A stretch of 64,000 nucleotides of DNA from positions 248,001 through 312,000 of the forward strand of contig NZ_FOYL01000005.1 in the NCBI RefSeq assembly GCF_900115955.1, given 5' to 3'. The DNA is from Lentzea waywayandensis (lineage in GTDB: Bacteria > Actinomycetota > Actinomycetes > Mycobacteriales > Pseudonocardiaceae). A program made the position numbers and the translations under genes. The first letter of the stretch is position 1. Each line of letters opens with the position of its first letter. Positions 6,787-22,989 of this stretch are shown piece after piece. Below the pieces are notes generated by a model. It was not told where the DNA came from and ran no database searches. It saw only the letters and a list, made by a program, of their open reading frames with translations.

Positions 6787-7373
6787 CCGCGCACGGCGGC
6801 AAGCGCTTGTTCGTACAGCTCGAACGCATCAGCCTTGCCGCCGTGGCGGACCCACAGCTCCGACGCGGTGTCGACGCACGCGAACACCGTGGCGATGACG
6901 CCCATCGCGCGGGCGTCCGGGATCTCACCCGAGTCGATGCCCATCCGCTTCTCGATCACGGGCGCGAGCGAGTGTTGCCACTTCAGCCGCTTCTCGAAGT
7001 AGCGGGCCCGCAGCGGCGCGTTCGTGAAGATCAGCGTGGAGATCTCCAGCACCCGTTGCGGGGTGTGGTTCGACGCGGCGAGGATCGTGGTGAACCCGGC
7101 CCGCAGAGCGTCCCAGGTGGACACTTCGGGAGCCTGGGCCTCGACCGTGGCGACCAGCAGGTCGCCCAGCGCCTCCTGATCGCCGCAGACCAGGTCCTCC
7201 TTGGTGCCGAAGTACCGGAACAACGAACGCTGCGACACTCCGGCCCGCGTGGCGACCTGGGCCATGGTGGTCGCCTCGTACCCCTGTTCCGCGAACAGGG
7301 TCAGGGCCGTGTCGACGATCTCGGCGACCACGGCCTGCCGCGACCGGTCCCACAACGTCGCCGGCTTCTCCAT
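6783..7373 (-). CDS. TetR-family transcriptional regulator
   Basis: TetR-type repressor of about 196 residues. The N-terminal helix-turn-helix is clear ([25 protein letters not shown], then [15 protein letters not shown]), followed by an all-helical ligand domain with no recognisable ligand signature. The ATG at 7373 is preferred; a GTG nine bases upstream is possible. It is followed closely by the dehydrogenase gene read in the same direction from further right, so it may sit at the end of that transcript. TetR regulators usually control neighbours; the short-chain dehydrogenase is the likely candidate here, by position only. Confidence 0.85.
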
Positions 7374-7383
7374 GGCCCCCACT

Positions 7384-8175: not shown

Positions 8176-8285
8176 GCCGACACCGTACGCCAGTCTGGCA
8201 GTCACTGCCAACCTGTCCTTTTCTGCCCGAATTCATCCGTAACGTTGCCCGAGGAGCGACGATCTTGGGGCGTGGGAGGACAACG

Positions 8286-11270
8286 GTGATCCGGCGGCCC
8301 CGGCTCGAAGGGCTGCTCTGCGCGACGAGGCTCACGACGCTCGTCGCCCCTGCCGGGTACGGCAAAACGACACTTCTGACGCAAGCGCACACCGACCGTC
8401 CGGTCGTGTGGCACACCTGCCAGGAAGGCCATCGGCTGGTGCAGCCGATGGCGTCCGCCTTGGCAACTGGATGGACCAGCGTGCCGTCGGTGTCCGGAGA
8501 GGACGAGTCCGGACGCGCGCACGCTCTCGCCGGACTGCTGGCCGACGCCTGGCCGGAGGACGTGCTGATCGTCCTGGACGACATTCATGTGCTGAGACAA
8601 GGAGATTCGGCCGCAGGGCTGCTGGAGGCGCTCTGCCTTCAGCTTCCGCCGAGCGCTCGGCTCGTGCTGTCCGGACGGACGCCCGCGCCGTTCTCGTTGC
8701 GGCGCCTGAAGGTCGACGGCGAACTGACCGAGATCACCGCGGCCCAGCTCGCGTTCACGACGGAAGAGACCACCGTGGTCGCGGGGAACGACGTGCACGA
8801 CGTCACCGGCGGATGGCCGATCGCGGTGCGGCTGGTGGCGGAGACGGGAACGGTCGAGGAGCTCGGCGACCTGGTGGACGAGGTCGTCGGCCGAGAACCG
8901 CGGCAGACCCGGGAGCTGCTCAGGACCGCGGCCGCGTTCGATCGGTTCACCATCGATCTGCTGACCTCGCTGGGACATCCGAAGGCCGCGGTCATCCTGC
9001 CCGATCTGGCCCGGCGCGGGCTGTTCGTGGAACACGTCCGGGCCGAACCGGGGTGGTTCGCGCTCGTGCCGCTGGCGCGGGAGTTCCTGGAGCCGGCGGC
9101 AGGTGTGCACGCGGCGGCAGCGCGGTGGTTCACGTCCCGGGGCGAGTACGTCCGCGCGGTGGATTCCCTTGCGGCGCTGGAGGACTGGCCCGGCGTCACG
9201 GCGTTGCTCGGCGACGTGCTGCGAACGCGCGGAGCGGACGCCGTGCTGACCGCGACAAGTCTTGTGCCAGAAGAAGAACGCACGGCCGAGGTCTGGCAGC
9301 TCGAAGGCGTCGCGCACCAGTTGCGCGGCGAGTGGCTGCCGGCGGCGGACCGGTTCACCCAGGCCACCGCGGACGGCCTCACCGCCGAACTGGCCTGGCG
9401 CATGGCGTGGATCCAGCACCTGCGCGGCGGACCGCAGGACGCGCTGAGGATCTGCGACGAGTACCTGCCGGACGGTGCCGATCCCGCGGCGGAGTCGATG
9501 CTGCTGAGCACCGCCGCGAGCGCGCACTGGGCGTTGGGAGATCTGGAGTCGGCGGCACTCAAGGCTGTTGCCGCGTTGGAGACCGCGACGAGTGACGCGG
9601 GCATGGGCACCGCGCACACCGTTCTCGCGATGGTCGCTGCGGCGCAAGGAAAACGTGACGAACTGACCGAGCACTACGACATCGCGCTCGACCACGCGCA
9701 GAAGGCCGGCGACGTGCTCGGTGTCATCCGCATCCGCTCGAACCGTGCGTCGCACCACGTCGAGGCGGGTGAGCACGGGGCTGCGTTGCGGGAGATCGAG
9801 GAGATGCTGCCGCTCGCGGACGTCACCGGGTTCGCCACCTACCGGGCGATCGGGCTGCACAACCGCGGCGAGGCGTTGCTCGGACTGGGCAGGCTGGATG
9901 AGGCCGCGGCGGATTTCCATGCCGCGCAGAAGGTTTTCGACCAGGCCGGGAGCTGGCTCGCGGCGGCACCGCTGGTCTACCTGGGCGAGGTGCACCGGCT
10001 GCGCGGCGACCGTGCGCTGGCGGCGTTCGCGTTGCACGAGGCACTCAGGCTCGCGTCGGCCAAGAACACCGTGCCGCATCTGGTTCTCGCTCACGTCGGG
10101 CTCTCCGAGCTGTTCTCCGACGACGACCCCGACCTGGCGCGTGAGCACGCCCGCAAGGCGCTGGAGCTGGGCGAGAGCGTGGCGGCGCTACTCGTGCTGG
10201 GGTGGCTCGACCACGACAAGGGCCTGTGCCAGGAGGCCGCGGAGATCGCGACCCGGCGTGGCGACCGGGCCGGGTTCGCACGGTCGTTGCGGCTGCGAGG
10301 AGTGCTGGAACGCGACCCGGTCCTGCTCGACCAGGCGCTGACGTTGTGGCGCGAGATCGGCAACCCGCTCGGCGAGGTCCGGGTGCGCACGGCCCAGGCG
10401 GCGCTGATCGGTGGTGCGGCAGGAGAACAACTGGCCCTGGAGGCGCGGCAGCAGGCCGCGGATCTCGGTGCGAGGGTGCTCGTCGAAGCCGCCGCGGCCG
10501 TCGCCGAGACGTGCCGGAAGGCGGCCAGGCCGGCGTTGTTCATCCAGACGCTGGGCGGGTTCCGGGTGCTGCGCGACGGCGAACCGCTGCCGCCCGCAGC
10601 GTGGCAGTCGCGCAAGGCCAGGGACCTGGTGAAGATCCTCATCGCCCGGCGCGGGCGGCCGATCACCCGTGAGGCGCTGGGAAACCTGCTGTGGCCCGAC
10701 GAGGAACCGGAGAAGGTCGCGAACCGGCTGGCGGTGGCGTTGTCCACGGCCCGCAGCGTGTTGCGGGCGGGCACGGGAATCGTGGCCGAGGGTGACGCGA
10801 TCCGGCTCGACCCGGACGTGCTGCCCGTCGACGTGGCCGCGTTCCTGGCCGACGCGCGGGCCGGACTCGCTGCCGCACAACGGAACTCGTCCGAGGCGCA
10901 GTCCCTGCTCGCGGCCGCCGAGTCCGCGTACCACGGCGACTTCCTGGAGGAGGACCCGTACGAGGACTGGGCGGCCCGGCTGCGCGAGGAGGCCCGGCTG
11001 ATCTACCTGCAGGTCGTGGCGGTGCTCGCCGCACGGGCCGAGTCCGGTGGGGAGCACGCACTGGCAAGCAGGTATTGCCTTCGCGTGCTCGAACGCGACC
11101 CGTACGACGAGCCGGCGCACCTGATGCTGGTGCGCGTCCTCGCCGCCGCAGGGAGTCATGGCGAGGCTCGGAGGAGCTACCAGACCTACGTCACGCGGAT
11201 GCGGGAGATCGAGGTCGACCCGCATCCGTACCCCGGCGTCTTCAGTGGGAGCACACGACGTAGGGCGTGA
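8286..11270 (+). CDS. Large STAND ATPase regulator with C-terminal BTAD DNA-binding domain
   Basis: Regulator of 994 residues. The start resembles MalT-type STAND proteins (IRRPRLEGLL), followed by Walker A APAGYGKTT at 21-29 and Walker B LIVLDDIH around 94-101, so it should bind ATP. The middle, about 230-740, is a run of TPR-like helical repeats. From about 750 there is an OmpR-like winged helix (TLGGFRVLRDGEPLP, then SRKARDLVKILIARRG) and a bacterial transcriptional activation domain to the end. It therefore places a SARP-type DNA-binding module after the STAND part, instead of the LuxR-type HTH of MalT or the N-terminal module of AfsR. GTG 8286 was chosen because GGAGGA lies five bases upstream. 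The target is unknown. Confidence 0.85.
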   Translation: MIRRPRLEGLLCATRLTTLVAPAGYGKTTLLTQAHTDRPVVWHTCQEGHRLVQPMASALATGWTSVPSVSGEDESGRAHALAGLLADAWPEDVLIVLDDIHVLRQGDSAAGLLEALCLQLPPSARLVLSGRTPAPFSLRRLKVDGELTEITAAQLAFTTEETTVVAGNDVHDVTGGWPIAVRLVAETGTVEELGDLVDEVVGREPRQTRELLRTAAAFDRFTIDLLTSLGHPKAAVILPDLARRGLFVEHVRAEPGWFALVPLAREFLEPAAGVHAAAARWFTSRGEYVRAVDSLAALEDWPGVTALLGDVLRTRGADAVLTATSLVPEEERTAEVWQLEGVAHQLRGEWLPAADRFTQATADGLTAELAWRMAWIQHLRGGPQDALRICDEYLPDGADPAAESMLLSTAASAHWALGDLESAALKAVAALETATSDAGMGTAHTVLAMVAAAQGKRDELTEHYDIALDHAQKAGDVLGVIRIRSNRASHHVEAGEHGAALREIEEMLPLADVTGFATYRAIGLHNRGEALLGLGRLDEAAADFHAAQKVFDQAGSWLAAAPLVYLGEVHRLRGDRALAAFALHEALRLASAKNTVPHLVLAHVGLSELFSDDDPDLAREHARKALELGESVAALLVLGWLDHDKGLCQEAAEIATRRGDRAGFARSLRLRGVLERDPVLLDQALTLWREIGNPLGEVRVRTAQAALIGGAAGEQLALEARQQAADLGARVLVEAAAAVAETCRKAARPALFIQTLGGFRVLRDGEPLPPAAWQSRKARDLVKILIARRGRPITREALGNLLWPDEEPEKVANRLAVALSTARSVLRAGTGIVAEGDAIRLDPDVLPVDVAAFLADARAGLAAAQRNSSEAQSLLAAAESAYHGDFLEEDPYEDWAARLREEARLIYLQVVAVLAARAESGGEHALASRYCLRVLERDPYDEPAHLMLVRVLAAAGSHGEARRSYQTYVTRMREIEVDPHPYPGVFSGSTRRRA

Positions 11271-11985
11271 TCGACCAGCGGATGGCCTGGCCCTGCGCGT
11301 CCGTTCCCTCACCGGTGACGGTCGCGCCGGCGCCGGCCGGGGTGACGTCCTCGATGATCCCGCCGCCGACCGCGCCGCCGGCGCTGACGACCTGCTCGTC
11401 GCCTTGGCAGGCAACGGACTTCGAGGCCGTCTTGGTGACCACGACCGTGGGAGTACCACCGCGCAGCACCAGTCCCGGCCGCGTGCCGCAGATCGCGTGC
11501 ACCGTGACGGTGCCGGACCCCTCGACCAGACCGCCCTTGAGGTTGTTCTTGGGCGCCATCTTCGTGAGGTGGCCGCCGTCGGTCTCCCCCGCCACGCCGA
11601 GCGCCTTCTGGGTGCCGGGACAGGCTGCCTCGGCACTCGCGGTGCCGCTCTTGGACGCCAGCGTGAACTCACCGGGCGCACAGGTCGCCCGCACCGTCAC
11701 CGTCCACGGCAGCACGGTCCCCACGCCGTGCTCGACCGCCGTGACCTCGGCGCTCGTGAGGTCGTCGCTCGGCCGCACGCGCGTGATCGTCGTCCGCTCG
11801 CCGGTCACCGCGCCGCCCGTGCCGACGACCTTCGTGCCGTTGGGGCAGCTGACCGAGACCGTCTTGCCCGCCGACGTCGCCGCACTGGTGGCCTGCACCG
11901 CCACGACGTCCGTGCTCGCCTGCGCCACGCCCGGAGTCGCCAGACTCAGCACGAGCAGGGCCGTGCTCATCACCTTCACGTTCAT
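11242..11985 (-). CDS. Secreted protein with three internal repeats
   Basis: Unrecognised secreted protein of 247 residues. The N terminus is a signal peptide with a likely cleavage after AQA at residue 23. The mature part holds three diverged copies of a module of about 70 residues, each starting with a Cys near CPNGTK, CPGTQK or CQGDEQ, continuing through a Gly-rich turn, and ending in a second Cys after a beta strand (VRATC, VHAIC, YVVC). The paired cysteines suggest one disulfide per module. The 3' end overlaps the end of the large regulator gene by 29 bases. Similar small secreted repeat proteins occur in actinomycetes without assigned function. Confidence 0.75.
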   Translation of the reverse strand: MNVKVMSTALLVLSLATPGVAQASTDVVAVQATSAATSAGKTVSVSCPNGTKVVGTGGAVTGERTTITRVRPSDDLTSAEVTAVEHGVGTVLPWTVTVRATCAPGEFTLASKSGTASAEAACPGTQKALGVAGETDGGHLTKMAPKNNLKGGLVEGSGTVTVHAICGTRPGLVLRGGTPTVVVTKTASKSVACQGDEQVVSAGGAVGGGIIEDVTPAGAGATVTGEGTDAQGQAIRWSITPYVVCSH

Positions 11986-11988
11986 CCC

Positions 11989-12029
11989 CCTTCGGGTCCG
12001 CGGGCCTGGTCAGCCCGCGGACCCGAAGG
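11989..12029 (-). terminator. 17-bp hairpin in front of the repeat-protein gene
   Basis: Perfect inverted repeat with 17-bp arms and a 7-base loop, containing TTCGGGTCCGCGGGC and its complement. It lies between the RTX-like gene and the repeat-protein gene, both read leftward, and stops three bases before the latter's ATG, so its 3' arm includes the GAAGG part of the ribosome-binding site. It could be a terminator or attenuator for read-through, or a structure that hides the RBS. No U-run follows. Confidence 0.6.
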
Positions 12030-12059
12030 ATGCCGCGCTCGCTTAAAGCCGCATTAAGG

Positions 12060-12863
12060 TCAGGGGCAGCTGATCAGGACGTCGCCGTCGGCGGCGTCGA
12101 GGCAGGTGTCCACGCCGAGCCCGCCGTTGAGGGTGTCGTTGCCGGCCGCGCCCCAGATGAGGTCGTTGCCGTTCAACGCCGTGATGCTGTTCGCCAGTGC
12201 GTTGCCGACCAGGTGGTCGACGAAGTTGGTGCCGGTCAGGTTCTCCACGTCGCTCGCGACGTAGTCCTTGAGCGCCAGCGTGTCGTAGCCGTCGTCCGTG
12301 CCGGAGCCGATGGTCACCGAGACGCCCGAGTTCGGGTGCAGCGAGCTGCCGATGCTGTAGTCGACGCGGTCGATGCCGGTGCCGCCGTAGACGTTCACGC
12401 CACCGCGCTTGGGCCGCAGGTGGTCGACGCCGTCGCCGCCGCTGATCGTGCCCCTGGCGCGGGTCTCGATGACGTCGTTGCCCGCCTCGCCGTACACGTG
12501 GGCCGGCATCGCGTCGGCGTTGGTGTTGTCGTAGGCGACGTTGACCCGGTCGTTGAGGTCGTTCGCCCGGATCTGGATCGACGTGATCAGCTTCGTGGCA
12601 CCGGACTCGTACGTGCAGTTCACGTTGGCACCGCTGAGCGTGCAGCCGGCGCCGACGGCCAGCAGGTCACCGGAGTCGGTGACGGTGAGGCGGTGCAGCG
12701 CGGTGTCCAGGCCGACCGTGATGTTGTTCGTCTTGCCGGGCTCGGCCTCGACGATCAGCACGTTGTTCTGCACGTAGACAGTCGTGTGCGGTGCGGCGTG
12801 CGCGACGGCGGGCATCGCGATCGCGGCGAGAGCGGCGGCGCCCAGACCGATGAGCATTCTCAT
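12060..12863 (-). CDS. Secreted RTX-like calcium-binding repeat protein
   Basis: Secreted protein of 267 residues. The signal peptide ends near residue 22 (AVAHA). The C-terminal half contains degenerate glycine-rich nonapeptide repeats of the hemolysin type, such as GEAGNDVIE, SGGDGVDHL, GGTGIDRVD, LNGNDLIWGAAGND and GGLGVDTC, which form a calcium-binding beta roll. Two closing cysteines (DTCLDA and VLISC) may clamp the end. ATG 12863 has GGGGAG upstream at a good distance. In actinomycetes such proteins usually lack the type I secretion genes of Gram-negatives; none is visible here and the signal peptide points to Sec export. Function unknown. Confidence 0.82.
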   Translation of the reverse strand: MRMLIGLGAAALAAIAMPAVAHAAPHTTVYVQNNVLIVEAEPGKTNNITVGLDTALHRLTVTDSGDLLAVGAGCTLSGANVNCTYESGATKLITSIQIRANDLNDRVNVAYDNTNADAMPAHVYGEAGNDVIETRARGTISGGDGVDHLRPKRGGVNVYGGTGIDRVDYSIGSSLHPNSGVSVTIGSGTDDGYDTLALKDYVASDVENLTGTNFVDHLVGNALANSITALNGNDLIWGAAGNDTLNGGLGVDTCLDAADGDVLISCP

Positions 12864-12954
12864 GCTGTGTTCTCCCCTTGGTGGTCGTTGCCTTGCGGGG
12901 AACAGCCTGCTCAGCGCTCTTTCGGTCACCTTCGGGTCGTTTTAGGGCCGTCTT

Positions 12955-12969
12955 TCTGCTGGTAGCAGA
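12955..12969 (+). promoter_or_regulatory. PopR-type box upstream of popR
   Basis: TCTGCT-GGT-AGCAGA, a perfect inverted repeat close to the TCTGCC-3N-GGCAGA motif that I recall for Streptomyces lividans PopR. It ends 41 bases before the popR start. It is also the tip of a longer imperfect hairpin with arms AGGGCCGT and ACGGCCCT. It suggests autoregulation of popR. Confidence 0.65.
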
Positions 12970-13010
12970 ACGGCCCTTTGCGGTCGTCCCGATGCTGTCA
13001 CCATGACGAC

Positions 13011-13370
13011 ATGGCGGAGATCCTGGACTTCAAGCGCACCCCGGAGCCCCTGTGGCGGGAAGCCCTGGGCCGGAAGCTTCGCGAGACCAGAGAGGAACGC
13101 GGCGACCGGCTGGTCGACGTGGCCGAACGGGCGGGCATCTCGGTGCAGTACCTGTCCGAGATCGAACGCGGCCGCAAGGAGCCGTCGAGCGAGATGATCG
13201 CGGCGGTCGCCGGAGCGCTCGGCATCGACCTGGCCGATCTGCTGATCGGCATCGCCGGCCAGGTCCGCAACCTCCGCGCCGCCAGCCCGTTCCAGACCGG
13301 AGGCCACTTCCACACCTCACGCCCGACGGGCCGCCCTTCTGGCCCGGTGGCGATGGCCTTCGCCGCCTAG
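13011..13370 (+). CDS. popR: PopR-like XRE-family activator of clpP genes, with Ala-Ala C terminus
   Basis: Transcription factor of 119 residues. A Cro/C1-type helix-turn-helix spans about residues 15-80 (LRETREERGDRLVDVAERAG, ISVQYLSEIERGRKEPS). The protein ends MAFAA. In Streptomyces, PopR and ClgR are regulators of clp genes and are themselves degraded by ClpP through a C-terminal Ala-Ala signal; this protein has that ending and lies beside two clpP genes. Matching inverted-repeat boxes stand about 41 bases before this gene and before the clpP pair. The ATG at 13011 was chosen because it gives the usual short N terminus. The symbol is used by homology and context. Confidence 0.85.
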   Translation: MAEILDFKRTPEPLWREALGRKLRETREERGDRLVDVAERAGISVQYLSEIERGRKEPSSEMIAAVAGALGIDLADLLIGIAGQVRNLRAASPFQTGGHFHTSRPTGRPSGPVAMAFAA

Positions 13371-13445
13371 AGCCTGTGCGGTTCGGCTGTCGCGGACCAG
13401 ACTTCGACACAGGCCCCACGCCGCCGCGCCCTTCCAGCAACGGGC

Positions 13446-14036
13446 TCAGGTCCGCTGGTCCAGCACGCGGTCGACCAGCCCGTACTCGACCGCGCCCGCC
13501 GCGTCGAACACGCGGTCCCGGTCGGTGTCGTGGCGCAGTTCGGCCACGGTCCGGCCGGTGTGCCGAGCCAGGATCGCCTCCAGCTGCGTGCGCACCCGCA
13601 CCACCTCGTCCGCCGCGAGGATGAGGTCCGGGATCGTGCCCCGCCCCTGCGCCGCAGGCTGGTGCAGCACGACCCTGGAGTGCGGCAGCACGGACCGGCG
13701 CCCTTCCGCACCCGCGGCCAGCAGCACCGCGCCCGCCGCAACCGCTTGCCCCACACAGGTGGTGGCGACCGGCGCCTTGATGTAGCGCATGGTGTCGTAG
13801 AGCGCGAGCATCGCCGACGGGTCACCGCCCTCGCAGTTGATGTAGAGGTTGATCTCCATGTCCGGGTTGTCGGCCTCCAGGTGGAAGAGCTGCGCGATCA
13901 ACGCGTTCGCGACACCGGAGTCGATCCCGGTGCCCAGGTAGACGATCCGCTCGGACAGCAGGTGCGAGTAGACGTCCATGACCCGCTCGCCGCGAGCGTC
14001 CCGCGTGATGACGTTGGGAATGGTGTAGGTGCTCAT
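13446..14036 (-). CDS. clpP: ClpP-like subunit lacking the catalytic serine
   Basis: ClpP-fold protein of 196 residues, full length for the mature family and in overlap (ATGA) with the clpP gene before it. The His and Asp of the triad are present (His125 in VVLHQP, Asp170 in RHDTDRD), but the segment where ClpP normally reads GQAASMGA is GQAVAAGA here. The serine position is Ala100, codon GCG at 13737-13739, which I checked on the bases. The Gly-Gly oxyanion region (INCEGGDPS) is kept. The subunit should fold and join a ring but not cleave peptides itself. It may act in a mixed complex with the partner subunit or be regulatory. It is not a decayed gene, since the frame and the rest of the family motifs are intact. 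Confidence 0.9.
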   Translation of the reverse strand: MSTYTIPNVITRDARGERVMDVYSHLLSERIVYLGTGIDSGVANALIAQLFHLEADNPDMEINLYINCEGGDPSAMLALYDTMRYIKAPVATTCVGQAVAAGAVLLAAGAEGRRSVLPHSRVVLHQPAAQGRGTIPDLILAADEVVRVRTQLEAILARHTGRTVAELRHDTDRDRVFDAAGAVEYGLVDRVLDQRT

Positions 14037-14647
14037 GCGACGGCTCCCGAGTGCAGTCCCAGCTTGTGCATGCGGACGGGGACGACCTGCCCCAGGTCGC
14101 TCACGACGTGATCGATGAACCCGTACTCGTGCGCCTGCGCCGTGGTGAACCACCGGTCGTGCAGCGAGTCGGTGAAGATCCGGTCGAACGGTTGCCCGGT
14201 GTCCTCCGCGATCAGCCCGAGCACGGTGTCCCTGGTGTGCCGCAGGTCGTCCGCCTGCACCTCCACCTCGACGGCCGAGCCACCGATGCCCGCACTCCCC
14301 TGGTGCATCAGGATCCGCGCGTGCGGCAACGCGAACCGCTTGCCCGGCGTTCCCGCCGACAACAGGAACTGCCCTGCGCTGCAAGCCAGTCCCAGCGCCA
14401 GCGTCGCCACATCACACGGCACCAACCGCATCACGTCGCGAATGGCCAGCATCGAGGGCACCGAACCACCCGGCGAGTTGATCCACAACGCGATGTCCTG
14501 CCGCGGATCCTCGCTCGCCAGCGACAACATCTGGGTCGCCAGCACCGTGCCGTTGTCGTCGTCGAGCGCGCCGTCGAGAATCAGCACCCGCTGACCGAAG
14601 AACCGTTCCCGCAGCCCTGGGCTGAAGAGCTTCTCGTTGTTCGTCAT
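14033..14647 (-). CDS. clpP: ATP-dependent Clp protease proteolytic subunit ClpP
   Basis: ClpP serine protease of 204 residues, first gene of a two-gene clpP operon. The triad is complete: Ser90 in LACSAG, His115 in ILMHQG and Asp160 in FTDSLHD. It would form a heptameric ring that degrades substrates fed by a Clp ATPase (ClpX or ClpC, not in this window). With the downstream subunit it corresponds to the accessory clpP3/clpP4-type pair of actinomycetes, which is switched on by PopR when the main ClpP1P2 is impaired. A PopR-type box lies 42 bases upstream. The motif around Ser (LACSAGQ in place of QAASMGA) is divergent, as in accessory ClpPs. Confidence 0.92.
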   Translation of the reverse strand: MTNNEKLFSPGLRERFFGQRVLILDGALDDDNGTVLATQMLSLASEDPRQDIALWINSPGGSVPSMLAIRDVMRLVPCDVATLALGLACSAGQFLLSAGTPGKRFALPHARILMHQGSAGIGGSAVEVEVQADDLRHTRDTVLGLIAEDTGQPFDRIFTDSLHDRWFTTAQAHEYGFIDHVVSDLGQVVPVRMHKLGLHSGAVA

Positions 14648-14689
14648 GCCACCGACGATGCCGGGCCGCGCGGCCGGTCCGCTTCCTTC

Positions 14690-14704
14690 TCTGCTGTGGG
14701 CAGA
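14690..14704 (-). promoter_or_regulatory. PopR-type box upstream of the clpP pair
   Basis: TCTGCT-GTG-GGCAGA, differing from the recalled PopR motif TCTGCC-3N-GGCAGA at one base. Its near edge is 42 bases from the clpP start, almost the same spacing as the box before popR (41). It lies within a wider inverted repeat (CTGCTGTG and CACAGCAG). The likely role is PopR activation of the clpP operon. Confidence 0.7.
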
Positions 14705-14721
14705 TCAGCTCACAGCAGCCC

Positions 14722-15426
14722 TCACACGGCGAGCACCCGTTGGTAGGTCAACGGAATCGGATCGTCGTACGGATCGGTCACCGGCTCGCCGTCGGCCTCG
14801 ATCCAGGCGTGGAACGACTGCGGATCGCTCGCCACACCCAGACACCACTGCACCGAGCCACCGCGCAACGCCGCGGTCAGCGCGGCCGTCAACGAGAGCT
14901 CGAGGCACGCCACCCGTCCCAGGTGGAACCTGCTGACCCGCTTGGCCGCCGCAAGCGCTTGCAGCGCCTCGGTTCTCGTCGCCGTCCGCCTGGCCCGGCC
15001 GCGCTTCACGAGCTTGAAGCCCTTCACCGTCACCCGGAACGGCAACCGCAGCAGCACAAGCGCCAACGGCAACGCCACAGCCGCCACCAGCAGCGGTCGC
15101 AGCGCCACCGGAGTGCGAGGAGCCAGCGCGATCGGAACCCCGCCGCTACCCCGTGCGAGACCTCCTGGTTCCAGCAGACCTCGCTCCACCAACGCGGACA
15201 GGAGTTCCTCCGCGTGCACGCGAATGCCTTCCGGAGACTCGCGCGGGTACCGGCTCGTGAAGACCTCGACGGCGACGTCGAGTCCGCCGGCGCAGATCTC
15301 GGAGCAGAGTTCGTTCCCGGTGCGGTTCAGCTTGTGCCACTGACCGGTCGCCACGTTCAGGAGAACGAGACCGCCGTCGTCCTCGGAAGTCGTGTGCACC
15401 GAGTCGGGAACCACGAAATGCGTCAT
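14722..15426 (-). CDS. Lasso peptide maturation protease with fused RRE (B1-B2 fusion)
   Basis: Bifunctional lasso-peptide protein of 234 residues. Residues 1-88 form a PqqD-like RiPP recognition element (LVLLNVATGQWHKLNRTGNE, then EELLSALVERGLLE) that should grip the precursor leader. Residues from about 100 on are the transglutaminase-like B2 protease that removes the leader, with Cys174 (ACLELS), His206 (FHAWIE) and Asp218 as the expected triad. A hydrophobic stretch at 108-130 lies between them. Actinomycete loci usually encode B1 and B2 separately, so the fusion is less common. The ATG at 15426 overlaps the cyclase stop, so the genes form one operon. Confidence 0.88.
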   Translation of the reverse strand: MTHFVVPDSVHTTSEDDGGLVLLNVATGQWHKLNRTGNELCSEICAGGLDVAVEVFTSRYPRESPEGIRVHAEELLSALVERGLLEPGGLARGSGGVPIALAPRTPVALRPLLVAAVALPLALVLLRLPFRVTVKGFKLVKRGRARRTATRTEALQALAAAKRVSRFHLGRVACLELSLTAALTAALRGGSVQWCLGVASDPQSFHAWIEADGEPVTDPYDDPIPLTYQRVLAV

Positions 15427-17087
15427 GTCGAAGCCACTTTTCTCGCGTTCGCGCGAAGCCACACTTCAACGGCGAGAACCTGGTTGAGCGCACCCCACGG
15501 CACGCGCAGCCCGTTCACCGCGTCTTCGAGCACCTGGCGGACCGGGACCGGGTCGATCAGCCCGAAGTCGGCCGCCGCCGAATCGGAGAGCAACCGGCGC
15601 AGCTCCGGCGCCGCCCGCCGAATGCCCTGGTAGGCCTCGCGGCTGTAGTCCCCTTTGGTCTCCCTGGACAGGACGCGATCAGGAACGAGGCCTGCCAGCG
15701 CCTTCTTCAACAAGGGCTTGGCCACGGCCGGGTCCGCCCGCCGGCGTGCCGGAATCGCCATGGCGGCCCGCACCACGGCCGTGTCGAGAAACGGGGCGTG
15801 GGCGGCGATCCCGACCTCGGCGGCGGCTTCCCGGTGCACCTGCTGTGTGAGACCGTGCAGACGCAACTGGTTGAGCACAACGGACTCACCGGCGTCCACA
15901 TCGGACTCCTGACCGGCCACCAGCCGGGCCTGCGCGGCCAGCAGGTGCCGGGTCGATCGCGTGAACCAGTGCACCTGCGGCAGGTCCCAACGCGCGACGA
16001 CCGAGACCTCCCACGGCACGTCGCCAACCGCGTGGCCCTGTTCCAGAGCGCGGGCGAGCCGGAGCAACGCGCCCCGGCGACCCAGGCCGGCCATGAACAC
16101 CGCCCGCCTGAACACACTGAGCGGAGACCGGTTGCGCAGCCGTGCCCAGGCGAAGCAGTGCCGCCACAACGTGGTCAGCTCACCCCGCCGGGCGAGATCG
16201 ACGAAGTAGGCGCCGGGCGCCCACAGCACGGAATCGCCGCCCTCACCCATCAGATGGACGTCGGCACCGAGTGCGGCGGCGGCCGAGAACCGGAGCCGGG
16301 CAGGACCGCAGGCGATCGAGGCCGGATGCGGTTCGTCGCCCCTCGACAGCAGGTCCTGAAAGGGAAGGGACTCGGCCGGCAGCTTCACGAGCTGATGGTC
16401 GAACCGCCGTTCCACGCTGACGTAGCGCTCCGCCCGCTCCACGTCGTCAAGGACCGGCGCATCGGGGTTGTAGTGCGTGAACACCGAAAGGCCTGGCACG
16501 TCGCGAAGAGCGAGGCAGGCGATTGAGGTCGAGTCGAGGCCGCCGCTGAAGTCGGAGACCAACCGGCGCGCGGAAAGCGCACGGGCGCGCACCGCGGCCA
16601 CGAGTGCGTCGCGCAGCATTTCCGCCGCGTCGGCCTCGCTCAGGTCAGGATCCACGCGCAGTGGCGCGTACGGACGTTCGTCGAACTGCCCGTTCCCGAC
16701 GTGCAGCGCATGACCTTCACGGACCCGCCGGACACCTTGGTACAGGCTGCGGTTCTCCAGCAGGCCCGCTCCGTCGAGGCATGCCAGGCGGGTGGCGAGG
16801 TAGACCCGGTCGACGTCGGTTCCGAGGTCGCTCGCCTTCGTGCCATGTCGCCCGGAATCGTCGTAGTAGAGCGGAAACTGCCCCACCGGGTCGGCGAACA
16901 GCGTCGTCTCACCCGGCTGCCGCACGATCGCCGAGTAACAGCCGACATGGCCCGTCAGAGAACGATGTTCACCGGATTCGGTGAACTCGGCGAGAGAGCG
17001 CGCGAGAACGTCCTCTTCGGCGAAACACTGGCCGAAGACCTCTGCCGAAGCGTCCGGAGTCCTAGTTAAAACTCTGGCCGGAGGCAT
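15423..17087 (-). CDS. Lasso peptide cyclase (asparagine-synthetase-like)
   Basis: Asparagine-synthetase-like enzyme of 554 residues that would activate the side-chain acid of the core peptide with ATP and close the macrolactam. The N-terminal glutamine-amidotransferase-like fold (to about 150) lacks the N-terminal catalytic Cys, as in lasso cyclases. The PP-loop SGGLDSTS is at 181-188, and a second synthetase motif, ETKGDYSREAYQG, is near the C terminus. The ATG at 17087 lies inside the end of the precursor gene, overlapping it by 26 bases, and no later good start precedes the conserved fold. Codon 7 is TTA, rare in high-GC actinomycetes. With the RRE-B2 gene and the precursor it forms the core of a lasso locus. 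Confidence 0.88.
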   Translation of the reverse strand: MPPARVLTRTPDASAEVFGQCFAEEDVLARSLAEFTESGEHRSLTGHVGCYSAIVRQPGETTLFADPVGQFPLYYDDSGRHGTKASDLGTDVDRVYLATRLACLDGAGLLENRSLYQGVRRVREGHALHVGNGQFDERPYAPLRVDPDLSEADAAEMLRDALVAAVRARALSARRLVSDFSGGLDSTSIACLALRDVPGLSVFTHYNPDAPVLDDVERAERYVSVERRFDHQLVKLPAESLPFQDLLSRGDEPHPASIACGPARLRFSAAAALGADVHLMGEGGDSVLWAPGAYFVDLARRGELTTLWRHCFAWARLRNRSPLSVFRRAVFMAGLGRRGALLRLARALEQGHAVGDVPWEVSVVARWDLPQVHWFTRSTRHLLAAQARLVAGQESDVDAGESVVLNQLRLHGLTQQVHREAAAEVGIAAHAPFLDTAVVRAAMAIPARRRADPAVAKPLLKKALAGLVPDRVLSRETKGDYSREAYQGIRRAAPELRRLLSDSAAADFGLIDPVPVRQVLEDAVNGLRVPWGALNQVLAVEVWLRANARKVAST

Positions 17088-17202
17088 CGCTGGAACCGCT
17101 GGCGCTTCCGAAGGTGATGTCGTACACGGATCCCAGGTCGAACAGCACAGGCGGCTCGTAAGCGTGGTCCGCCGCTGCGACGTCGACGTCGTTCTCGATC
17201 AA
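17062..17202 (-). CDS. Lasso peptide precursor
   Basis: Short gene of 46 residues starting with TTG at 17202; GGAAGAGG lies seven bases upstream. The leader contains YEPPVLFDLGSVYDIT, an exact match to the Y-x2-P-x-L-x3-G-x5-T leader pattern read by lasso RRE domains. After Thr-Phe (Thr at position -2) the predicted 15-residue core is GSASGSSDASGQSFN. Gly1 and Asp8, the only acidic core residue, would close an 8-residue ring, leaving a 7-residue tail with Phe14 as the only bulky residue. The gene overlaps the start of the cyclase. Other starts in frame are absent nearby. The ring assignment is inferred from family rules. Confidence 0.85.
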   Translation of the reverse strand: MIENDVDVAAADHAYEPPVLFDLGSVYDITFGSASGSSDASGQSFN

Positions 17203-17400
17203 GAAACTGCCTCTTCCACGGGGACCCCAGCGCCGACAAGGGCGTAAGAATAACCCCCACCGAAAGCTGTCAAGGGGCAACCCGTAGATCACCCGCGAGT
17301 CGTGCGAATCGCACGCTTGGGGGCTTCCGACTGATGCCTCGACCGCCGCTACCATGGCTTGGCGCTTCAATTCGAAGCCGAGGGGTTGGGGAGGCACCGA

Positions 17401-18621
17401 GTGCCCAGTGGCGGCGACAGGCACGCCCGAGACCTGATCTGGGGCCGGAAGTCGGACGCTCTCCGCGACCTCAACCGCAGGCGGGTGCTTCGCGCGATCA
17501 TGGTCTCTCCCGGCACCCAGGTGAATTTGGCCAAGTTCACCAACCTCTCCCAGGCGACCGTATCCGGAATCGTGCAGGAACTGCAGCGGGAAAACCTCGT
17601 GGTGGTCGACGGCAACGACAACGAACGCGGGAAGAAGGTCAGCCTCAGCAACGTTCGCGGCGTGGCCATCGGCGTCGAGGTCAGCTACGACACGGTCACC
17701 GTCGCCGCACGCCGGGTCGACGGCGACGTCGACCGGGTCGTGGTGGACTGGTCCGGTCGCGGCGCGGAACACGGCAGTCAGGCGTGGATGCGCGAGTGCG
17801 TGCAACTGATCGGGGAGGTCGTCCGGCGGACGGGCCTCGACGAGACCGACATCGTCGCGATCGGGCTGGGCATCCCCGCCGCGGTCGATCCGCGCACGAG
17901 CACGATCTCCCAGGTCGCGTGGGCGCTCGACTGGGAGCGGGGCATGGACCCCGGAGCACGCCTGCAGGAGCACTTCCCCGGCGTGCCGGTGATCATGGAC
18001 AACGAGGCGAACTTCGCTGCGTACGGCGAATATCTCTATGGTGCGGGGCGCGGTACGGAGACCATGCTGTTCGTGAAGTCGTCGACCAGCGTCAGCGCGG
18101 GGCTCATCATCAGGGGCCTGATCTACCGCGGCAGGCACGGTCTCGCGAGCGAGATCGGCCATCTCGTGATGGACCCGCTGGGCGTCGTCTGCCAGTGCGG
18201 CAACCGCGGATGCCTCGAAACCGCGGTCGGCGGCGCGCGTCTGGTCGAACAGGTCCGCGGGGCCTACGTCGGCTACCGGGTGGATCTGCCCAACAGCCTC
18301 GCGAACATCGTCGAGCGGGCGAAGAGCGGAGACCTGTTGTGCCGCCGGGTGCTTCAGGACGCGGGCCGCAACATCGGGATCGCGCTGTCCAGGACGTGCA
18401 ACCTGCTCAACCCGGAGAAGGTGTTCATCGGCGGAGAACTCGGCAGGGCGGTCGAGCTGGTGATCGAGCCGGCCATCCAGACGATGCGCCTGCACTCCCT
18501 CGGCGGGATGTTCAACTACGTGGCCCCGATGACCGTGGAGGCCTCCGAGCTCGGCCTGAAGGCAGGGGCGCAGGGCGCCCTCGCGTACGCGCTCACCGTC
18601 CACCACATCCGGCCGAACTGA
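17401..18621 (+). CDS. ROK-family transcriptional regulator
   Basis: ROK (repressor, ORF, kinase) protein of 406 residues. The N-terminal winged helix is at about 20-80 (LNRRRVLRAIMVSPGTQVN, ATVSGIVQELQRENLVV). The sugar-kinase-like domain has VAIGLGIPAAVDP, MDNEANFAAYGE and the zinc-binding CQCGNRGCLE. Most such proteins repress sugar genes and release DNA on sugar binding. GTG 17401 was chosen because GGGGAGG is six bases upstream; an earlier TTG at 17359 is possible. It diverges from the lasso precursor across about 200 bases, so it could control that locus, but no lasso link to ROK proteins is established. A 9-bp inverted repeat follows the gene. Confidence 0.88.
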   Translation: MPSGGDRHARDLIWGRKSDALRDLNRRRVLRAIMVSPGTQVNLAKFTNLSQATVSGIVQELQRENLVVVDGNDNERGKKVSLSNVRGVAIGVEVSYDTVTVAARRVDGDVDRVVVDWSGRGAEHGSQAWMRECVQLIGEVVRRTGLDETDIVAIGLGIPAAVDPRTSTISQVAWALDWERGMDPGARLQEHFPGVPVIMDNEANFAAYGEYLYGAGRGTETMLFVKSSTSVSAGLIIRGLIYRGRHGLASEIGHLVMDPLGVVCQCGNRGCLETAVGGARLVEQVRGAYVGYRVDLPNSLANIVERAKSGDLLCRRVLQDAGRNIGIALSRTCNLLNPEKVFIGGELGRAVELVIEPAIQTMRLHSLGGMFNYVAPMTVEASELGLKAGAQGALAYALTVHHIRPN

Positions 18622-18642
18622 AGAACCCGAGTCTTTGAATTC

Positions 18643-18773: not shown

Positions 18774-19370
18774 ATGAGCACCTCACCGGACCGGTCCAGT
18801 CGGCCCACCGACCGCTGGAACCACGTCAGCCATTCCGTCCTGTTCCTCGAAATCGCTTCTCTGGACGGCCCAGGCGGTACCGAAAGCGACCGCCAGGTGG
18901 CCAGGGCGCCACTGCACCGGGTACTGCGCTCCGCTTTCGCGGAGTCGGGCATTCCCTGGGCGAGCTGCCGCCACTCCGAGCGGCACGACGGCGTGCTGGT
19001 CGCCATTCCGCCCAGCATCTCCACCTCCGCGATCATCGACCGGCTGATCCCCTGCGTCGAGACCGGCATCCGGCGCTACAACCGCGAGGCCGCTCCCGTG
19101 CGGATACAGCTCCGGGCGGCCCTGCACGTCGGTCCTGTCATCGCGACCACCGACGGGCTCACCGGGCCGGCGATCGCCGTGGCGTCCTCGATCCTGAACG
19201 CGCCGGAACTGGTCAACTATCAACTCAAGACCGACATCGACCTCGCGGTGATGGTGTCGCCGCAGGTCTACGAGACCGTGATCCGGCACGCCTGCGGGTT
19301 CGCGGACCCGACGAGATATCGGGAGATTCACTCGGAGGGTTCCGCTGCGTGGCTCTGTTCGCCGGAGTGA
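18774..19370 (+). CDS. Small nucleotidyl-cyclase-fold protein
   Basis: Protein of 198 residues that resembles the single-domain, cyclase-fold proteins common in actinomycetes next to signalling and effector genes. Typical features are a first beta strand (HSVLFLEIASLDG), the RHDGVLVAIPP strand-turn, RIQLRAALHVGPV and a VMVSPQVYETVIR ending. The usual metal-binding Asp of the first strand is not seen at its expected place, so catalytic cyclase activity is doubtful. ATG 18774 has AAGGGGG upstream. It has no operon partner; it converges with the lactonase gene and overlaps it by 43 bases. The family assignment is by pattern and not certain. Confidence 0.6.
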   Translation: MSTSPDRSSRPTDRWNHVSHSVLFLEIASLDGPGGTESDRQVARAPLHRVLRSAFAESGIPWASCRHSERHDGVLVAIPPSISTSAIIDRLIPCVETGIRRYNREAAPVRIQLRAALHVGPVIATTDGLTGPAIAVASSILNAPELVNYQLKTDIDLAVMVSPQVYETVIRHACGFADPTRYREIHSEGSAAWLCSPE

Positions 19371-20191
19371 GCCGGAACGAACTCGTTCGCCGGCCTGCCG
19401 GGCACGTCGACGTCGATGGCGAACACCGCGCCGTCGTGCAGTGAAGGGCGGCGCAGACCGTACTTCGCGGTGGTGATGAACAGGCGGCCCAGGTCCGGGC
19501 CGCCCAGGCAGACGCTCGTGGGCTGCCGGGCGGGCAGGCACACCTCCCGGTCCAGGCGGCCGTCCGGGCGGTAGCGACGCACGACGGACGCTCCCCAGAA
19601 GGCGATCCAGAGGTTGCCCGCGACGTCGGTGGTCATGCCGTCCGGGGTCTGGTGCGGGGTGTGCAGGAAGACGCGGCGGGCGCCCAGTTCGCCGCCGCTG
19701 CCGACGTCGAAGCGGTGGACCACTCCCCGTGCGCTGTCGGCGAGGTACAGGTACCTGCCGTCGTGGGAGAACGCCGGGCCGTTCGGGATCGTCAGTCCTT
19801 TGAGGACGGGTGAGGGCGATCCCAGACGGTGCAGGGCGCCGGTGCCGGGTTCGGTGTCGTAGGCCGTGGTCGTGACCCAGAACCGGCCTGCGGGGTCGGC
19901 CACGGCGTCGTTGACGCGCATGCCCTCGTCCGCGAAGGTCTCCTGCTGCGGGCCGTTCAGGAAGCCCGCGCCGGTGCCGTACGCGGCCATCAGCTCGTCG
20001 CTGCCCCGCACCGGCGCTACGGCGCCGACGGGGACCGGGAGAGCGACGATCTCGTTGAACGGCGCGGGAACGTCACCGCGGGTCTCCAGGACGCGGCCGG
20101 CCAGCAGGTCCACGACGACCAGTCTGCCGTTGATCCAGCGAGCGCCTTCGCCGAGTTCGAGCTGCTCGAAGTTCCACTGCGTCAGCGTCAT
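19328..20191 (-). CDS. SMP-30/gluconolactonase-family lactonase
   Basis: Six-bladed beta-propeller lactonase of 287 residues, presumed to hydrolyse a sugar lactone to the acid using a divalent metal in the cytoplasm. Family features are GEGARWINGRLVVVDL near the start, RVNDAVADPAGRFWVTT, IPNGPAFSHDGRYLYLADS and QTPDGMTTDVAGNLWIAFWG; the Glu, Asn and Asp metal ligands lie in these. It is the last gene of a three-gene operon, overlapping the kinase gene by 4 bases. With that kinase and the epimerase-like gene it suggests oxidation of a sugar to its acid and then phosphorylation, but the sugar is unknown. Confidence 0.88.
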   Translation of the reverse strand: MTLTQWNFEQLELGEGARWINGRLVVVDLLAGRVLETRGDVPAPFNEIVALPVPVGAVAPVRGSDELMAAYGTGAGFLNGPQQETFADEGMRVNDAVADPAGRFWVTTTAYDTEPGTGALHRLGSPSPVLKGLTIPNGPAFSHDGRYLYLADSARGVVHRFDVGSGGELGARRVFLHTPHQTPDGMTTDVAGNLWIAFWGASVVRRYRPDGRLDREVCLPARQPTSVCLGGPDLGRLFITTAKYGLRRPSLHDGAVFAIDVDVPGRPANEFVPAHSGEQSHAAEPSE

Positions 20192-21093
20192 CGGACGGTG
20201 CTCCCTGCTTGCAGGTCCAGCAGTTCCAGGTCGGCCCGGGTGGGCAGGCCCTGCCAGTCGCCGGGGGTGGCGACGGCGAACGCGGCGACGGCGTTGCCTC
20301 GGCGCAGCCGGGCCTCCGGGCCGAGACCGTCGAGGTGGCCGGAGAGGTAGCCCGCGACGAACGCGTCGCCCGCGCCGGTGGTGTCGGCGACGGTGACGCG
20401 ATGGGCGGCGGCGGTCCAGGTCCCGTCCGGAGTCCGCGCGGTGGCGCCGTCCGCGCCGTGCTTCAGCACGACCTCGTGCACCTGGTGGTCGCCGGCGATC
20501 GGGAGTTCGTCGTCGGAGGCGATCAGCACGTCCACTCGCGCGAGAAGCGGCTGGATCACCTTGCCCGCGGCCTTCGGAGACCAGAGCTTCGACCGGAAGT
20601 TGACGTCGAGGCTGACCGTGCTGCCTGCCTCGTGGCCGAGGTGGATCGCCTCGGTGACGGCGGCGAGCGCGGACTCGCTCAGGGCCGGCGTGATGCCGGT
20701 GACGTGGACGATCCTCGGCACGCCGGCGTCGAACGAACGGCGAACGTCCTCTGTGGACAGAAGCGACCCGGCAGACCTGCCGCGGTAGTAGAGAACGCGG
20801 GTGATGTCGGCGGTTCGCGGTTCGAAGAGGATCAGGCCGGTGGCGGCGTCCGGCGTGATCCGGGCGGCGCCGACGTCCACCTGTTCGGCCAGCAGCGTGC
20901 GGCGGACGAGTGAGCCGATCTCGTCGGCGCCGGTCACCCCGGTCCAGCGCACCGCGTGGCCGAGGCGGGCGAGACCGATGGCCACGTTCGACTCGGCGCC
21001 GGCGACGGTGAGCTCCGCGGTTCCTCCCAGCCGGAACGGGCCGGCGGCGCGGAACGCACCCATGGTCTCGCCCAGGGTGAGCACGTCGGTCAT
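20188..21093 (-). CDS. PfkB-family sugar kinase, likely 2-keto-3-deoxygluconate kinase type
   Basis: Ribokinase-fold kinase of 301 residues. The N terminus (LTLGETMGAFRA, GGAESNVAIGLARLG) and the C-terminal signature DTTGAGDAFVAGYL, with the catalytic Asp in GAGD, define the PfkB family. Overall it is closest in pattern to 2-keto-3-deoxygluconate kinases, though ketohexose or deoxyketo-acid kinases are alternatives. The start overlaps the upstream epimerase-like gene, and the end overlaps the lactonase. Such a kinase feeds an aldolase that yields pyruvate; neither the aldolase nor the sugar-acid dehydratase is in the window. Confidence 0.85.
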   Translation of the reverse strand: MTDVLTLGETMGAFRAAGPFRLGGTAELTVAGAESNVAIGLARLGHAVRWTGVTGADEIGSLVRRTLLAEQVDVGAARITPDAATGLILFEPRTADITRVLYYRGRSAGSLLSTEDVRRSFDAGVPRIVHVTGITPALSESALAAVTEAIHLGHEAGSTVSLDVNFRSKLWSPKAAGKVIQPLLARVDVLIASDDELPIAGDHQVHEVVLKHGADGATARTPDGTWTAAAHRVTVADTTGAGDAFVAGYLSGHLDGLGPEARLRRGNAVAAFAVATPGDWQGLPTRADLELLDLQAGSTVR

Positions 21094-21857
21094 GCCGTTC
21101 CTCCCACGTGAGCGGTGATCGTCAGGCGCCAGCGCACCGAACCCGAGGCGGGCACGACCGCCACCGGACGGGTGGTGTCGTGGCGGTCGAACGTGCGGCC
21201 GAGCATGGGTTCCACGCCGATGCTTCGGTACGGATCACCTTCCGGCCAGCCCTTCAGGTTGCGCCACAACGCGATGGAGACGGGCTGGTCGGCGCACTCG
21301 ACGCGCAGGTCGAGTTGCTGATCTCCATCAACCACGCGGATCTGGCCACGTTCGAGCACCGCGCCGGCCGCCGTGCCGTCGTCGGGTCCCAGCGAGTCCA
21401 GTCCCGCGGGCCACTCCCGCAACTCAGGAACCGGATCGGCGATCAGCACGGAAGTGCCGGCCGGAGCGTCCAAACGGGCAACCGGGCTGACGTCGAGCAG
21501 GGCGTGCGCGGCCCACACGAACCGGTAGCCGGGCTCAGCTATCAGCTCGTAGTCGGCGACGACCGCGTCACCGTCGGACCCCGCCGAGCGGCGAAGCGTG
21601 AAGTGAGGACAGTCCACACCGGTCCGATGCCACGGCCTGCTCCAGGCGTCACCGTGATCAGGCAGGCCACGCACCGTCGGAACGCACTCCTCCAGGCCGC
21701 CGGCGTCGACGAACGCGGAGCCCGGTGTCACCTCGGAACGCGCGGGATCGGCACGGTGCCACAGCCACTCGCGGTCGGCTGTGCGCAGCGAGGTCCAGCG
21801 TCCGCCGAGGCTGCGATCGACCTCGACGTACAGCGGCACAACCCTGGTGACCTGCAC
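21090..21857 (-). CDS. Aldose-1-epimerase-like protein
   Basis: Protein of 255 residues with the look of a galactose-mutarotase-like fold. It has a beta-sandwich pattern, a stretch with EECVPTVRG and DHGDAWSRPW where mutarotases carry active-site acids and His, and a late GVEPMLGRTFDR segment. It is the first gene of the operon with the sugar kinase and lactonase, so it may interconvert anomers of the same sugar. The start is GTG at 21857 with CAGGGA upstream; an ATG 12 bases earlier is out of frame. The assignment is moderate because sequence similarity in this fold is low. Confidence 0.65.
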   Translation of the reverse strand: MQVTRVVPLYVEVDRSLGGRWTSLRTADREWLWHRADPARSEVTPGSAFVDAGGLEECVPTVRGLPDHGDAWSRPWHRTGVDCPHFTLRRSAGSDGDAVVADYELIAEPGYRFVWAAHALLDVSPVARLDAPAGTSVLIADPVPELREWPAGLDSLGPDDGTAAGAVLERGQIRVVDGDQQLDLRVECADQPVSIALWRNLKGWPEGDPYRSIGVEPMLGRTFDRHDTTRPVAVVPASGSVRWRLTITAHVGGTA

Positions 21858-21884
21858 GGTTCATCCCTGACATGATCAATCAGT

Positions 21885-21897
21885 AGTTAATTACTAA
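21885..21897. promoter_or_regulatory. AT-rich inverted repeat upstream of the sugar-acid operon
   Basis: TAGTTAATTACTA has TAGT and ACTA arms around TAATT, in an AT-rich patch 28 bases upstream of the epimerase-like start. In 70-plus percent GC DNA such a patch marks a promoter and a probable operator. The regulator is not known; neighbouring GntR and ROK proteins are candidates. Confidence 0.4.
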
Positions 21898-21932
21898 TTT
21901 ATCTTGCCATGGGCGGGCGTCAGGACCAACAG

Positions 21933-22835: not shown

Positions 22836-22971
22836 CAGGGACTCCCGCACACGATCATGCAAACCTGCACGACCGTAGCGGTCTCCGAGCACCGCCCACA
22901 TCCGCCGTTCGGCCTTGATCATCCGCGCGACGCCGCCACCTCGGGCCCCGCGCCACAACGCCTCACTGAGG

Positions 22972-22989
22972 CATAATGGCACTGTGCCA
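22972..22989 (+). promoter_or_regulatory. Putative leaderless promoter and operator at the GntR start
   Basis: CATAAT at 22972-22977 lies 6 bases before the GTG start at 22984, the spacing expected when transcription begins at the start codon, so the mRNA may be leaderless. The inverted repeat TGGCAC-T-GTGCCA at 22977-22989 overlaps the start codon and could be an autoregulatory operator. No clear -35 was found. Confidence 0.4.

What the first reader, a model, noticed from the sequence alone, without database searches (positions are those of the whole stretch)
17062..17202. Lasso precursor with a Gly/Ser-rich, nearly featureless core
The bases give a 46-residue precursor with a TTG start and the full Y-x2-P-x-L-x3-G-x5-T leader. 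The predicted core GSASGSSDASGQSFN contains six Ser, three Gly, one Asp and one Phe. Ring GSASGSSD is small and hydrophilic, and the tail has no strong bulky plugs except Phe14. I know no characterised lasso peptide with this core.
Basis: partly seen in the sequence, partly recalled or inferred. Interest (0 to 1): 0.8.

Follow-up and report, generated by a model that had tools for sequence, protein, structure and literature searches.

The report
Sugar-regulator-linked lasso peptide gene cluster
This stretch encodes a small Gly/Ser-rich peptide that a soil bacterium probably ties into a lasso-shaped knot; it belongs to an apparently uncharacterised peptide family whose genes usually travel with a sugar-sensor type regulator, which suggests a handle for switching the family on.

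Summary
On the minus strand (17202 to 17062) lies a TTG-started 46-residue precursor with the stated leader and the core GSASGSSDASGQSFN. A lasso cyclase and a fused RRE/B2 peptidase follow. The host is Lentzea-like.

The core is not isolated. Lentzea albida has the identical core; 12 distinct related cores from 13 loci all keep G1, G5 and D8, usually G11 (11) and Q12 (10), and F/Y14 in 8. The ring is probably Gly1-Asp8 with a seven-residue tail. Albusnodin-type cores share this layout, so a small hydrophilic ring is less odd than thought, but the window fails the albusnodin tests.

The new element is regulation. A ROK/Mlc-type regulator (17401-18621) is divergent from the precursor. ROK-linked cyclases form one clade (27 rows, support 99), although one ROK-less locus (L099) falls inside when added. 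A palindrome, CTTC-N5-GAAG, lies between regulator and precursor in 12 of 13 divergent loci (window 17365-17377), about 30 times denser there than in the rest of those loci. I infer a sugar-responsive repressor site.

The neighbouring clpP pair suggests ClpP self-resistance, but it is core clpP3P4 (24 of 24 genus genomes). No product, threading, operator binding or activity is shown.

The parts
17062..17202 (-). lasso precursor gene: leader 31 aa, core GSASGSSDASGQSFN (15 aa), TTG start
15423..17087 (-). lasso cyclase (asparagine-synthetase-like); its start overlaps the precursor's 3' end by 26 bp
   Evidence: PF00733 126.8 bits; NF033561 301 bits, cut-off 300; S-G-G-x-D-S-T invariant in the 8 rows aligned
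14722..15462 (-). fused RRE (PqqD-like) and B2 cysteine-peptidase protein
   Evidence: PF05402 and PF13471; NF033537 75.8 bits, cut-off 33; C186 and H218 invariant in the 10 rows aligned
17401..18621 (+). ROK-family transcriptional regulator (winged HTH plus ROK domain), divergent from the precursor
   Evidence: PF00480 150.2 bits and PF12802 27.9 bits, cut-off 27; matches over most of its length to Mlc and a NagC-like regulator in PDB; co-conserved
17365..17377 (.). palindrome CTTCAATTCGAAG, putative ROK operator between ROK and precursor
14033..14647 (-). clpP3-like gene next to the cluster; core gene of the genus, judged not part of the cluster
13446..14036 (-). clpP4-like gene; judged not part of the cluster
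18774..19370 (+). 198-aa protein after ROK, seen only in the window's subtype (4 of 4 species) among the 32 loci compared; class III nucleotidyl-cyclase-like fold; role unknown

Best explanation
A minimal lasso peptide cluster of order precursor, cyclase, RRE-B2, with no exporter gene found beside it, under a divergent ROK regulator. Inferred mechanism: (1) the RRE part of the fused protein binds YEPPVLFDLG of the leader; (2) its B2 part cleaves after T-F (Thr at -2) and frees GSASGSSDASGQSFN; (3) the cyclase activates Asp8 and joins it to the Gly1 amine, giving an 8-residue ring with a 7-residue tail threaded and held by Phe14, perhaps with Gln12; (4) the ROK protein binds CTTCAATTCGAAG at 17365-17377 and represses the precursor operon, probably its own gene too, until a sugar or sugar phosphate releases it. 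The released peptide is most likely a secreted antagonist or signal made under a particular carbon supply. Shown here by sequence: the genes, motifs, conservation and palindrome. Not shown: processing, threading, operator binding, ligand, export, activity.
For: Gene content and order. Precursor constraint: against L. albida the core has 2 synonymous and 0 non-synonymous codon changes, the leader 3 and 7 (small numbers). Of 12 distinct cores from 13 loci, G1, G5 and D8 are in 12, G11 in 11, Q12 in 10, F/Y14 in 8. ROK lies near the cyclase in 30 of 32 loci that I chose as closest (L100 and L138 are one place, so 29 of 31 distinct), and in 27 of all 80 loci of the cyclase scan. In the tree the ROK-linked rows (window plus 26 of those 27 loci) are one clade, SH-aLRT 99. 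The palindrome is in 12 of 13 divergent intergenic regions: 2.77 per kb inside against 0.084 per kb in the rest of 11 of these loci. L099, without ROK beside it, still has CTTCAATTTGAAG upstream of its precursor. ROK keeps ExGH and CxCGxxGCL(E/D)T in 30 of 30 rows.
Against: No peptide exporter or immunity gene was recognised among the neighbours scanned between 12978 and 27010 (one of them, 21090-21857, has no family at all, and a sugar PTS permease lies at 25403). L099 falls inside the ROK clade but has no ROK gene in its 18 kb, so the link is not absolute. The palindrome has no genome-wide excess in the window's genome: 5 sites against 5 for the reversed control. In 15 codirectional (Streptomyces-type) loci an exact CTTC-N5-GAAG occurs near ROK in 5, only looser forms in 8 (no background control was made for these), none in L137 and L140. 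Four of 12 cores lack F/Y at position 14, so a stable plug is not certain. The cyclase only just passes its family cut-off. The B2 triad's Asp does not align in all 10 rows.
Confidence: 0.75

Rival explanations
1. The lasso peptide targets ClpP, and the adjoining clpP pair is its self-resistance, as the accessory ClpP of the ADEP producer is.
For: By contig positions the cluster lies directly upstream of clpP3 in 6 of 24 genus genomes (maps). An accessory clpP near the ADEP cluster confers resistance (PMC12607617, passages including part of the abstract).
Against: clpP3 is in 24 of 24 genus genomes, the best match in each at 90-100% identity, with or without the lasso genes beside it. The cluster sits on another contig than clpP3 in G140 and G193. 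Within the flanks held, clpP genes occur in only 6 of 32 related loci. The XRE gene and, less well, clpP3 carry PopR-like boxes.
Confidence: 0.07
2. It is an albusnodin-family lasso peptide, acetylated on Lys10.
For: The cyclase scores just at the cut-off of the albusnodin/ikarugamycin model. Core layout G1xxxG5xx(D/E)8 plus a seven-residue tail resembles albusnodin-type cores such as GQGKGSAEDKRRAYN.
Against: NF033525 gives 12.2 bits (cut-off 30) for the window, but 72.2 and 41.6 for two albusnodin-type precursors. No Lys10. No acetyltransferase among scanned neighbours, while L150, L159 and L160 have a GNAT gene. The 8 albusnodin-type cyclases in the tree lie in a separate clade.
Confidence: 0.03
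3. The product is a branched-cyclic, unthreaded peptide, or the locus is a decaying remnant without product.
For: Small hydrophilic core, and 4 of 12 related cores lack F/Y at position 14.
Against: Open frames for all three genes, an identical core in L. albida despite two synonymous changes, and fixed G1/G5/D8.
Confidence: 0.15

Closest known systems
Albusnodin-family lasso peptides (NF033525; Streptomyces albus albusnodin)
   Same: Related cyclase family NF033561; small-residue ring with G1, often G5, an acidic residue at 8 and a seven-residue tail in albusnodin-type relatives found here.
   Different: Window has no Lys10 and no acetyltransferase found; precursor fails NF033525; separate cyclase clade; ROK regulator instead.
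Apparently uncharacterised ROK-linked sister group with cores such as GSSSSGTADANSQYYW (Streptomyces, Saccharothrix, Amycolatopsis and others)
   Same: Same cyclase clade, ROK neighbour in all of its loci examined but L099, Gly/Ser-rich ring, seven-residue tail with Q at the same place.
   Different: One more residue before the Asp, so probably a 9-residue ring; aromatic YYW end; ROK codirectional with the precursor rather than divergent.
ROK regulators Mlc and NagC
   Same: Winged HTH plus ROK domain over most of the length; ExGH and CxCG motifs kept.
   Different: Well below the equivalog cut-offs for Mlc (133 of 530 bits) and NagC (134 of 650 bits); ligand and operator untested.

Membership tests
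Lasso peptide biosynthetic cluster | precursor with RRE-recognised leader (YxxP...) and Thr at -2 | tested here: met
   generic leader model narrowly missed, 17.8 of 19 bits
Lasso peptide biosynthetic cluster | RRE (B1) and cysteine peptidase (B2) | tested here: met
Lasso peptide biosynthetic cluster | asparagine-synthetase-like cyclase with ATP motif | tested here: met
Lasso peptide biosynthetic cluster | Gly1 and an acidic residue at 7-9 for the macrolactam | tested here: met
   G1 and D8 in 12 of 12 distinct cores
Lasso peptide biosynthetic cluster | threaded product | not testable with these tools
   needs expression, MS and NMR
Albusnodin family | precursor passes NF033525 | tested here: not met
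   12.2 bits, cut-off 30; comparison precursors 72.2 and 41.6
Albusnodin family | Lys10 and a clustered acetyltransferase | tested here: not met
   Core residues 9-10 are A and S; no acetyltransferase among scanned neighbours
Albusnodin/ikarugamycin cyclase model NF033561 | score over the curated cut-off | tested here: met
   301 of 300 bits, a borderline pass
ROK transcriptional regulators | N-terminal winged HTH plus ROK domain | tested here: met
ROK transcriptional regulators | binds the proposed operator and is released by a sugar | not testable with these tools
   palindrome conservation only

The most novel reading that the evidence does not exclude
The ROK-linked clade is a distinct lasso family in which a sugar-sensing repressor gates the peptide and, in many members of the window's own branch, also a co-regulated TagF-like (teichoic-acid-polymerase-like) transferase: gene F4 is in 10 of 14 such loci, with the palindrome before it in 7 of 9 checked. 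That transferase would decorate the Ser-rich ring, or the producer's own cell wall, with sugar or polyol phosphate. The window's subtype would be the undecorated form, lacking that gene in the cluster.
Probability: 0.12. Interest if true: 0.75.

Novelty: new variant of a known kind. Interest (0 to 1): 0.42.

Why it matters
Many lasso clusters are silent in culture and their triggers unknown (general knowledge, not tested here). A ROK regulator with a conserved palindrome gives one clade, spread over several actinomycete families, a testable on-switch: delete ROK, or supply the right sugar. The core family also asks how a ring of Gly, Ser and Asn with few bulky tail residues can hold a thread. 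The window alone is one ordinary member.

Tried and rejected
ClpP self-resistance: attractive at first because the genome has only four clpP matches, rejected because clpP3 is in 24 of 24 genus genomes. Albusnodin membership: rejected on defining features. Reading 17334-18638 and 18783-19541 as genes: wrong frames; the first gave no Pfam hit and the correct frame 17401-18621 is ROK; the second has a codon-position G+C pattern that marks the opposite strand as coding. Some ORFs at 7301-12965 were likewise scanned in frames without any Pfam family and are unresolved. Sugar-related genes 19328-22997 as cluster members: rejected, since relatives of them follow clpP3 directly in the empty sites of G007 and G140. 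A genome-wide ROK regulon from the palindrome: no excess over control. F4 as a lasso-only gene: its homologue in the window's genome sits beside AfsR-like genes without lasso genes or palindrome. A 'ROK equals clade' rule without exception: L099 breaks it. The precursor motif search missed real precursors (L099, L134, L140, L157), so loci without a hit (L123 among the window's branch) are not shown to lack one.

Literature: no paper held the core strings. 'Lasso peptide' with 'ROK' gave 2 papers: one where rok is a Bacillus subtilis host deletion (passages) and one genome note that I did not open. 'Lasso peptide', 'ROK family' and 'glycoside hydrolase', any two: 68 papers, 15 listed, read as titles and abstract starts only. 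'Lasso peptide', RODEO, 'precursor peptide', 'glycine-rich' together: 0 papers. 'Lasso peptide' with Lentzea: 28 papers, 20 listed, one of them opened for lasso passages. The key survey Tietz 2017 is not held.

Full report
What is there. The finding's coordinates are right but the gene is on the minus strand. Reading 17202 to 17062 gives a 46-codon precursor from TTG with a GGAAGAGG ribosome-binding stretch 7 nt upstream. The plus strand gives nothing of the kind. The leader motif is exact, and its strict form occurs once in the window and once in total over 100 shuffled windows. The end of the precursor overlaps the start of a cyclase gene (15423-17087) by 26 bp. A fused RRE/B2 gene (14722-15462) follows. 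Pfam and NCBIfam identify both, although the cyclase only just passes the NF033561 cut-off.

Relatives. The window lies in a 10.15 Mb genome. Of 24 genus genomes, 17 have a B2 match, but at 76% identity or more only the window and three others; four more are at 43-46%. The L. albida core is identical to the window's. Across 13 loci there are 12 distinct cores: G1, G5 and D8 are invariant, G11 is in 11, Q12 in 10, and F or Y at position 14 in 8. The core is therefore not featureless. Against L. albida the core shows 2 synonymous and 0 non-synonymous codon changes, the leader 3 and 7; these numbers are small.

The ROK regulator. A family comparison of the window and 31 loci that I chose as closest (L100 and L138 are the same place) found one further gene with the cyclase almost everywhere: a ROK-family protein in 30 of 32 (absent in L099 and L133). 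In the window it is 17401-18621, with a winged helix-turn-helix and a ROK domain, matching Mlc and a NagC-like regulator over most of its length. It keeps the ExGH and CxCGxxGC motifs in 30 of 30 aligned rows; that these bind sugar and zinc, and that the altered N-terminal motif means no kinase activity, is recalled knowledge of the ROK family. Among all 80 scanned loci, 27 carry it within the DNA held and 53 do not. On a cyclase tree of 79 rows the ROK-linked rows (window plus 26 of the 27 loci; L115 lost to my filter) form one clade with SH-aLRT 99, four ROK-less loci are its sister group, and the albusnodin-type cyclases fall elsewhere. When L099 and L092 were added in a second tree of 55 rows, the ROK label needed two changes instead of one, and L099, which has no ROK gene in its 18 kb, had only ROK-clade rows as its six nearest neighbours; I take it to lie inside the clade. 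L099 has the sister-type core GNSASGNGDANSQYYW and keeps CTTCAATTTGAAG about 140 bp upstream of that reading frame. So ROK is typical, not universal. Both trees are of the quick kind with midpoint root.

The palindrome. Between ROK and precursor, 12 of 13 divergent loci have CTTC-N5-GAAG, consensus near CTTCRANTTGAAG; the thirteenth (L114) has one mismatch. In 11 of these loci the density is 2.77 per kb in that interval (10 of 11 loci) against 0.084 per kb elsewhere; seven of the 12 sites elsewhere lie between ROK and the next gene, F4. Within the window the pattern occurs twice, with 0.35 expected. Of 15 codirectional loci, an exact match lies near ROK in 5, looser forms in 8 more (without a background control), and none in L137 and L140. 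A narrower pattern, CTTCRANTYGAAG, has no excess in the whole window genome (5 against 5 for the control). I read the site as the ROK operator; binding is not shown.

F4 and other neighbours. F4 is in 10 of the 32 loci, all on the window's branch, and absent from the window's subtype. Of five members tested it matches PF04464 weakly in L119, L114 and L120 and nothing in L095 and L096. Sequence comparison with PDB found no relative (best E 0.19), but the predicted structure is nearest to the teichoic acid polymerase TagF (E 1.4e-11, TM 0.53). A homologue in the window's genome lies beside AfsR-like genes without lasso genes. The window's subtype has instead a 198-aa protein (18774-19370) with a class III nucleotidyl-cyclase-like fold; that model's mean confidence is 79.7, but the other four models scored 54-65.

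The clpP question. The clpP pair beside the cluster invites a self-resistance reading, since an accessory clpP protects the ADEP producer (PMC12607617, passages). But clpP3 is in 24 of 24 genus genomes. The cluster is next to it in six, and in G140 and G193 it lies on another contig. In G007 and G140 clpP3 is followed directly by relatives of the window's sugar-related genes, an empty site. The XRE gene downstream resembles ClgR (70 bits, under the cut-off of 170). A PopR-like box (motif recalled from work on Streptomyces; PopR control of clpP3clpP4 is in PMC9765437, passages) matches perfectly upstream of the XRE gene at 12954-12970 and with two mismatches upstream of clpP3 at 14689-14705. 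With three mismatches allowed the window has 8 matches against 4.05 expected, so only the perfect one is individually convincing.

Comparison with the known. The closest characterised relative is albusnodin. Albusnodin-type relatives here have cores such as GQGKGSAEDKRRAYN, with the same small ring layout. The window fails that family's tests: model score, Lys10 and acetyltransferase. That albusnodin is acetylated on Lys10 and was not made without its acetyltransferase is from PMC9266682 and PMC8498205 (passages). A Lentzea genome survey (PMC9120177, 12 of 13 passages) names citrulassin- and achromosin-type lasso clusters and low-similarity ones, but no such core in the passages seen.

Conclusion. 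A lasso cluster is well supported by sequence. The ROK link and its palindrome are the new part; within what I could search, I found no report of them. The product, its knot, its export and its purpose remain untested.

Noticed in passing
window 12954-14705: clpP3P4 plus a ClgR/PopR-like XRE regulator with a perfect TTCTGCY-N3-RGCAGAA box (12954-12970) and a two-mismatch one before clpP3; clpP3 is core in the genus.
   Followed up: partly
window 25403-27010: One ORF with both PTS EIIC (sorbose type) and EIID (mannose family) domains, unusual to my knowledge for such an actinomycete, near SGL, PfkB, CBM2 and GntR/UTRA genes.
   Followed up: no
window 18774-19370: Protein without Pfam hit whose model resembles class III nucleotidyl cyclases; follows ROK in the four closest species only.
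   Followed up: partly
L124-L132, L134, L138, L140, L157, L162: Sister lasso family with near-invariant cores GSSxSGxADANSQYYW across several actinomycete families, also ROK-linked.
   Followed up: partly
L099 6910-7457: A member of the sister family (core GNSASGNGDANSQYYW) with the palindrome upstream but no ROK gene in the 18 kb held; its regulator may act from elsewhere.
   Followed up: partly
L198 (window genome, contig C29): F4 (TagF-like) homologue beside two AfsR-like TPR genes without lasso genes, echoing the F4/F6 pair of the sister clusters.
   Followed up: partly
L132, L137, L140: One gene family precedes ROK in these three loci; the L132 member is glucokinase-like by Pfam (PF02685).
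   Followed up: no
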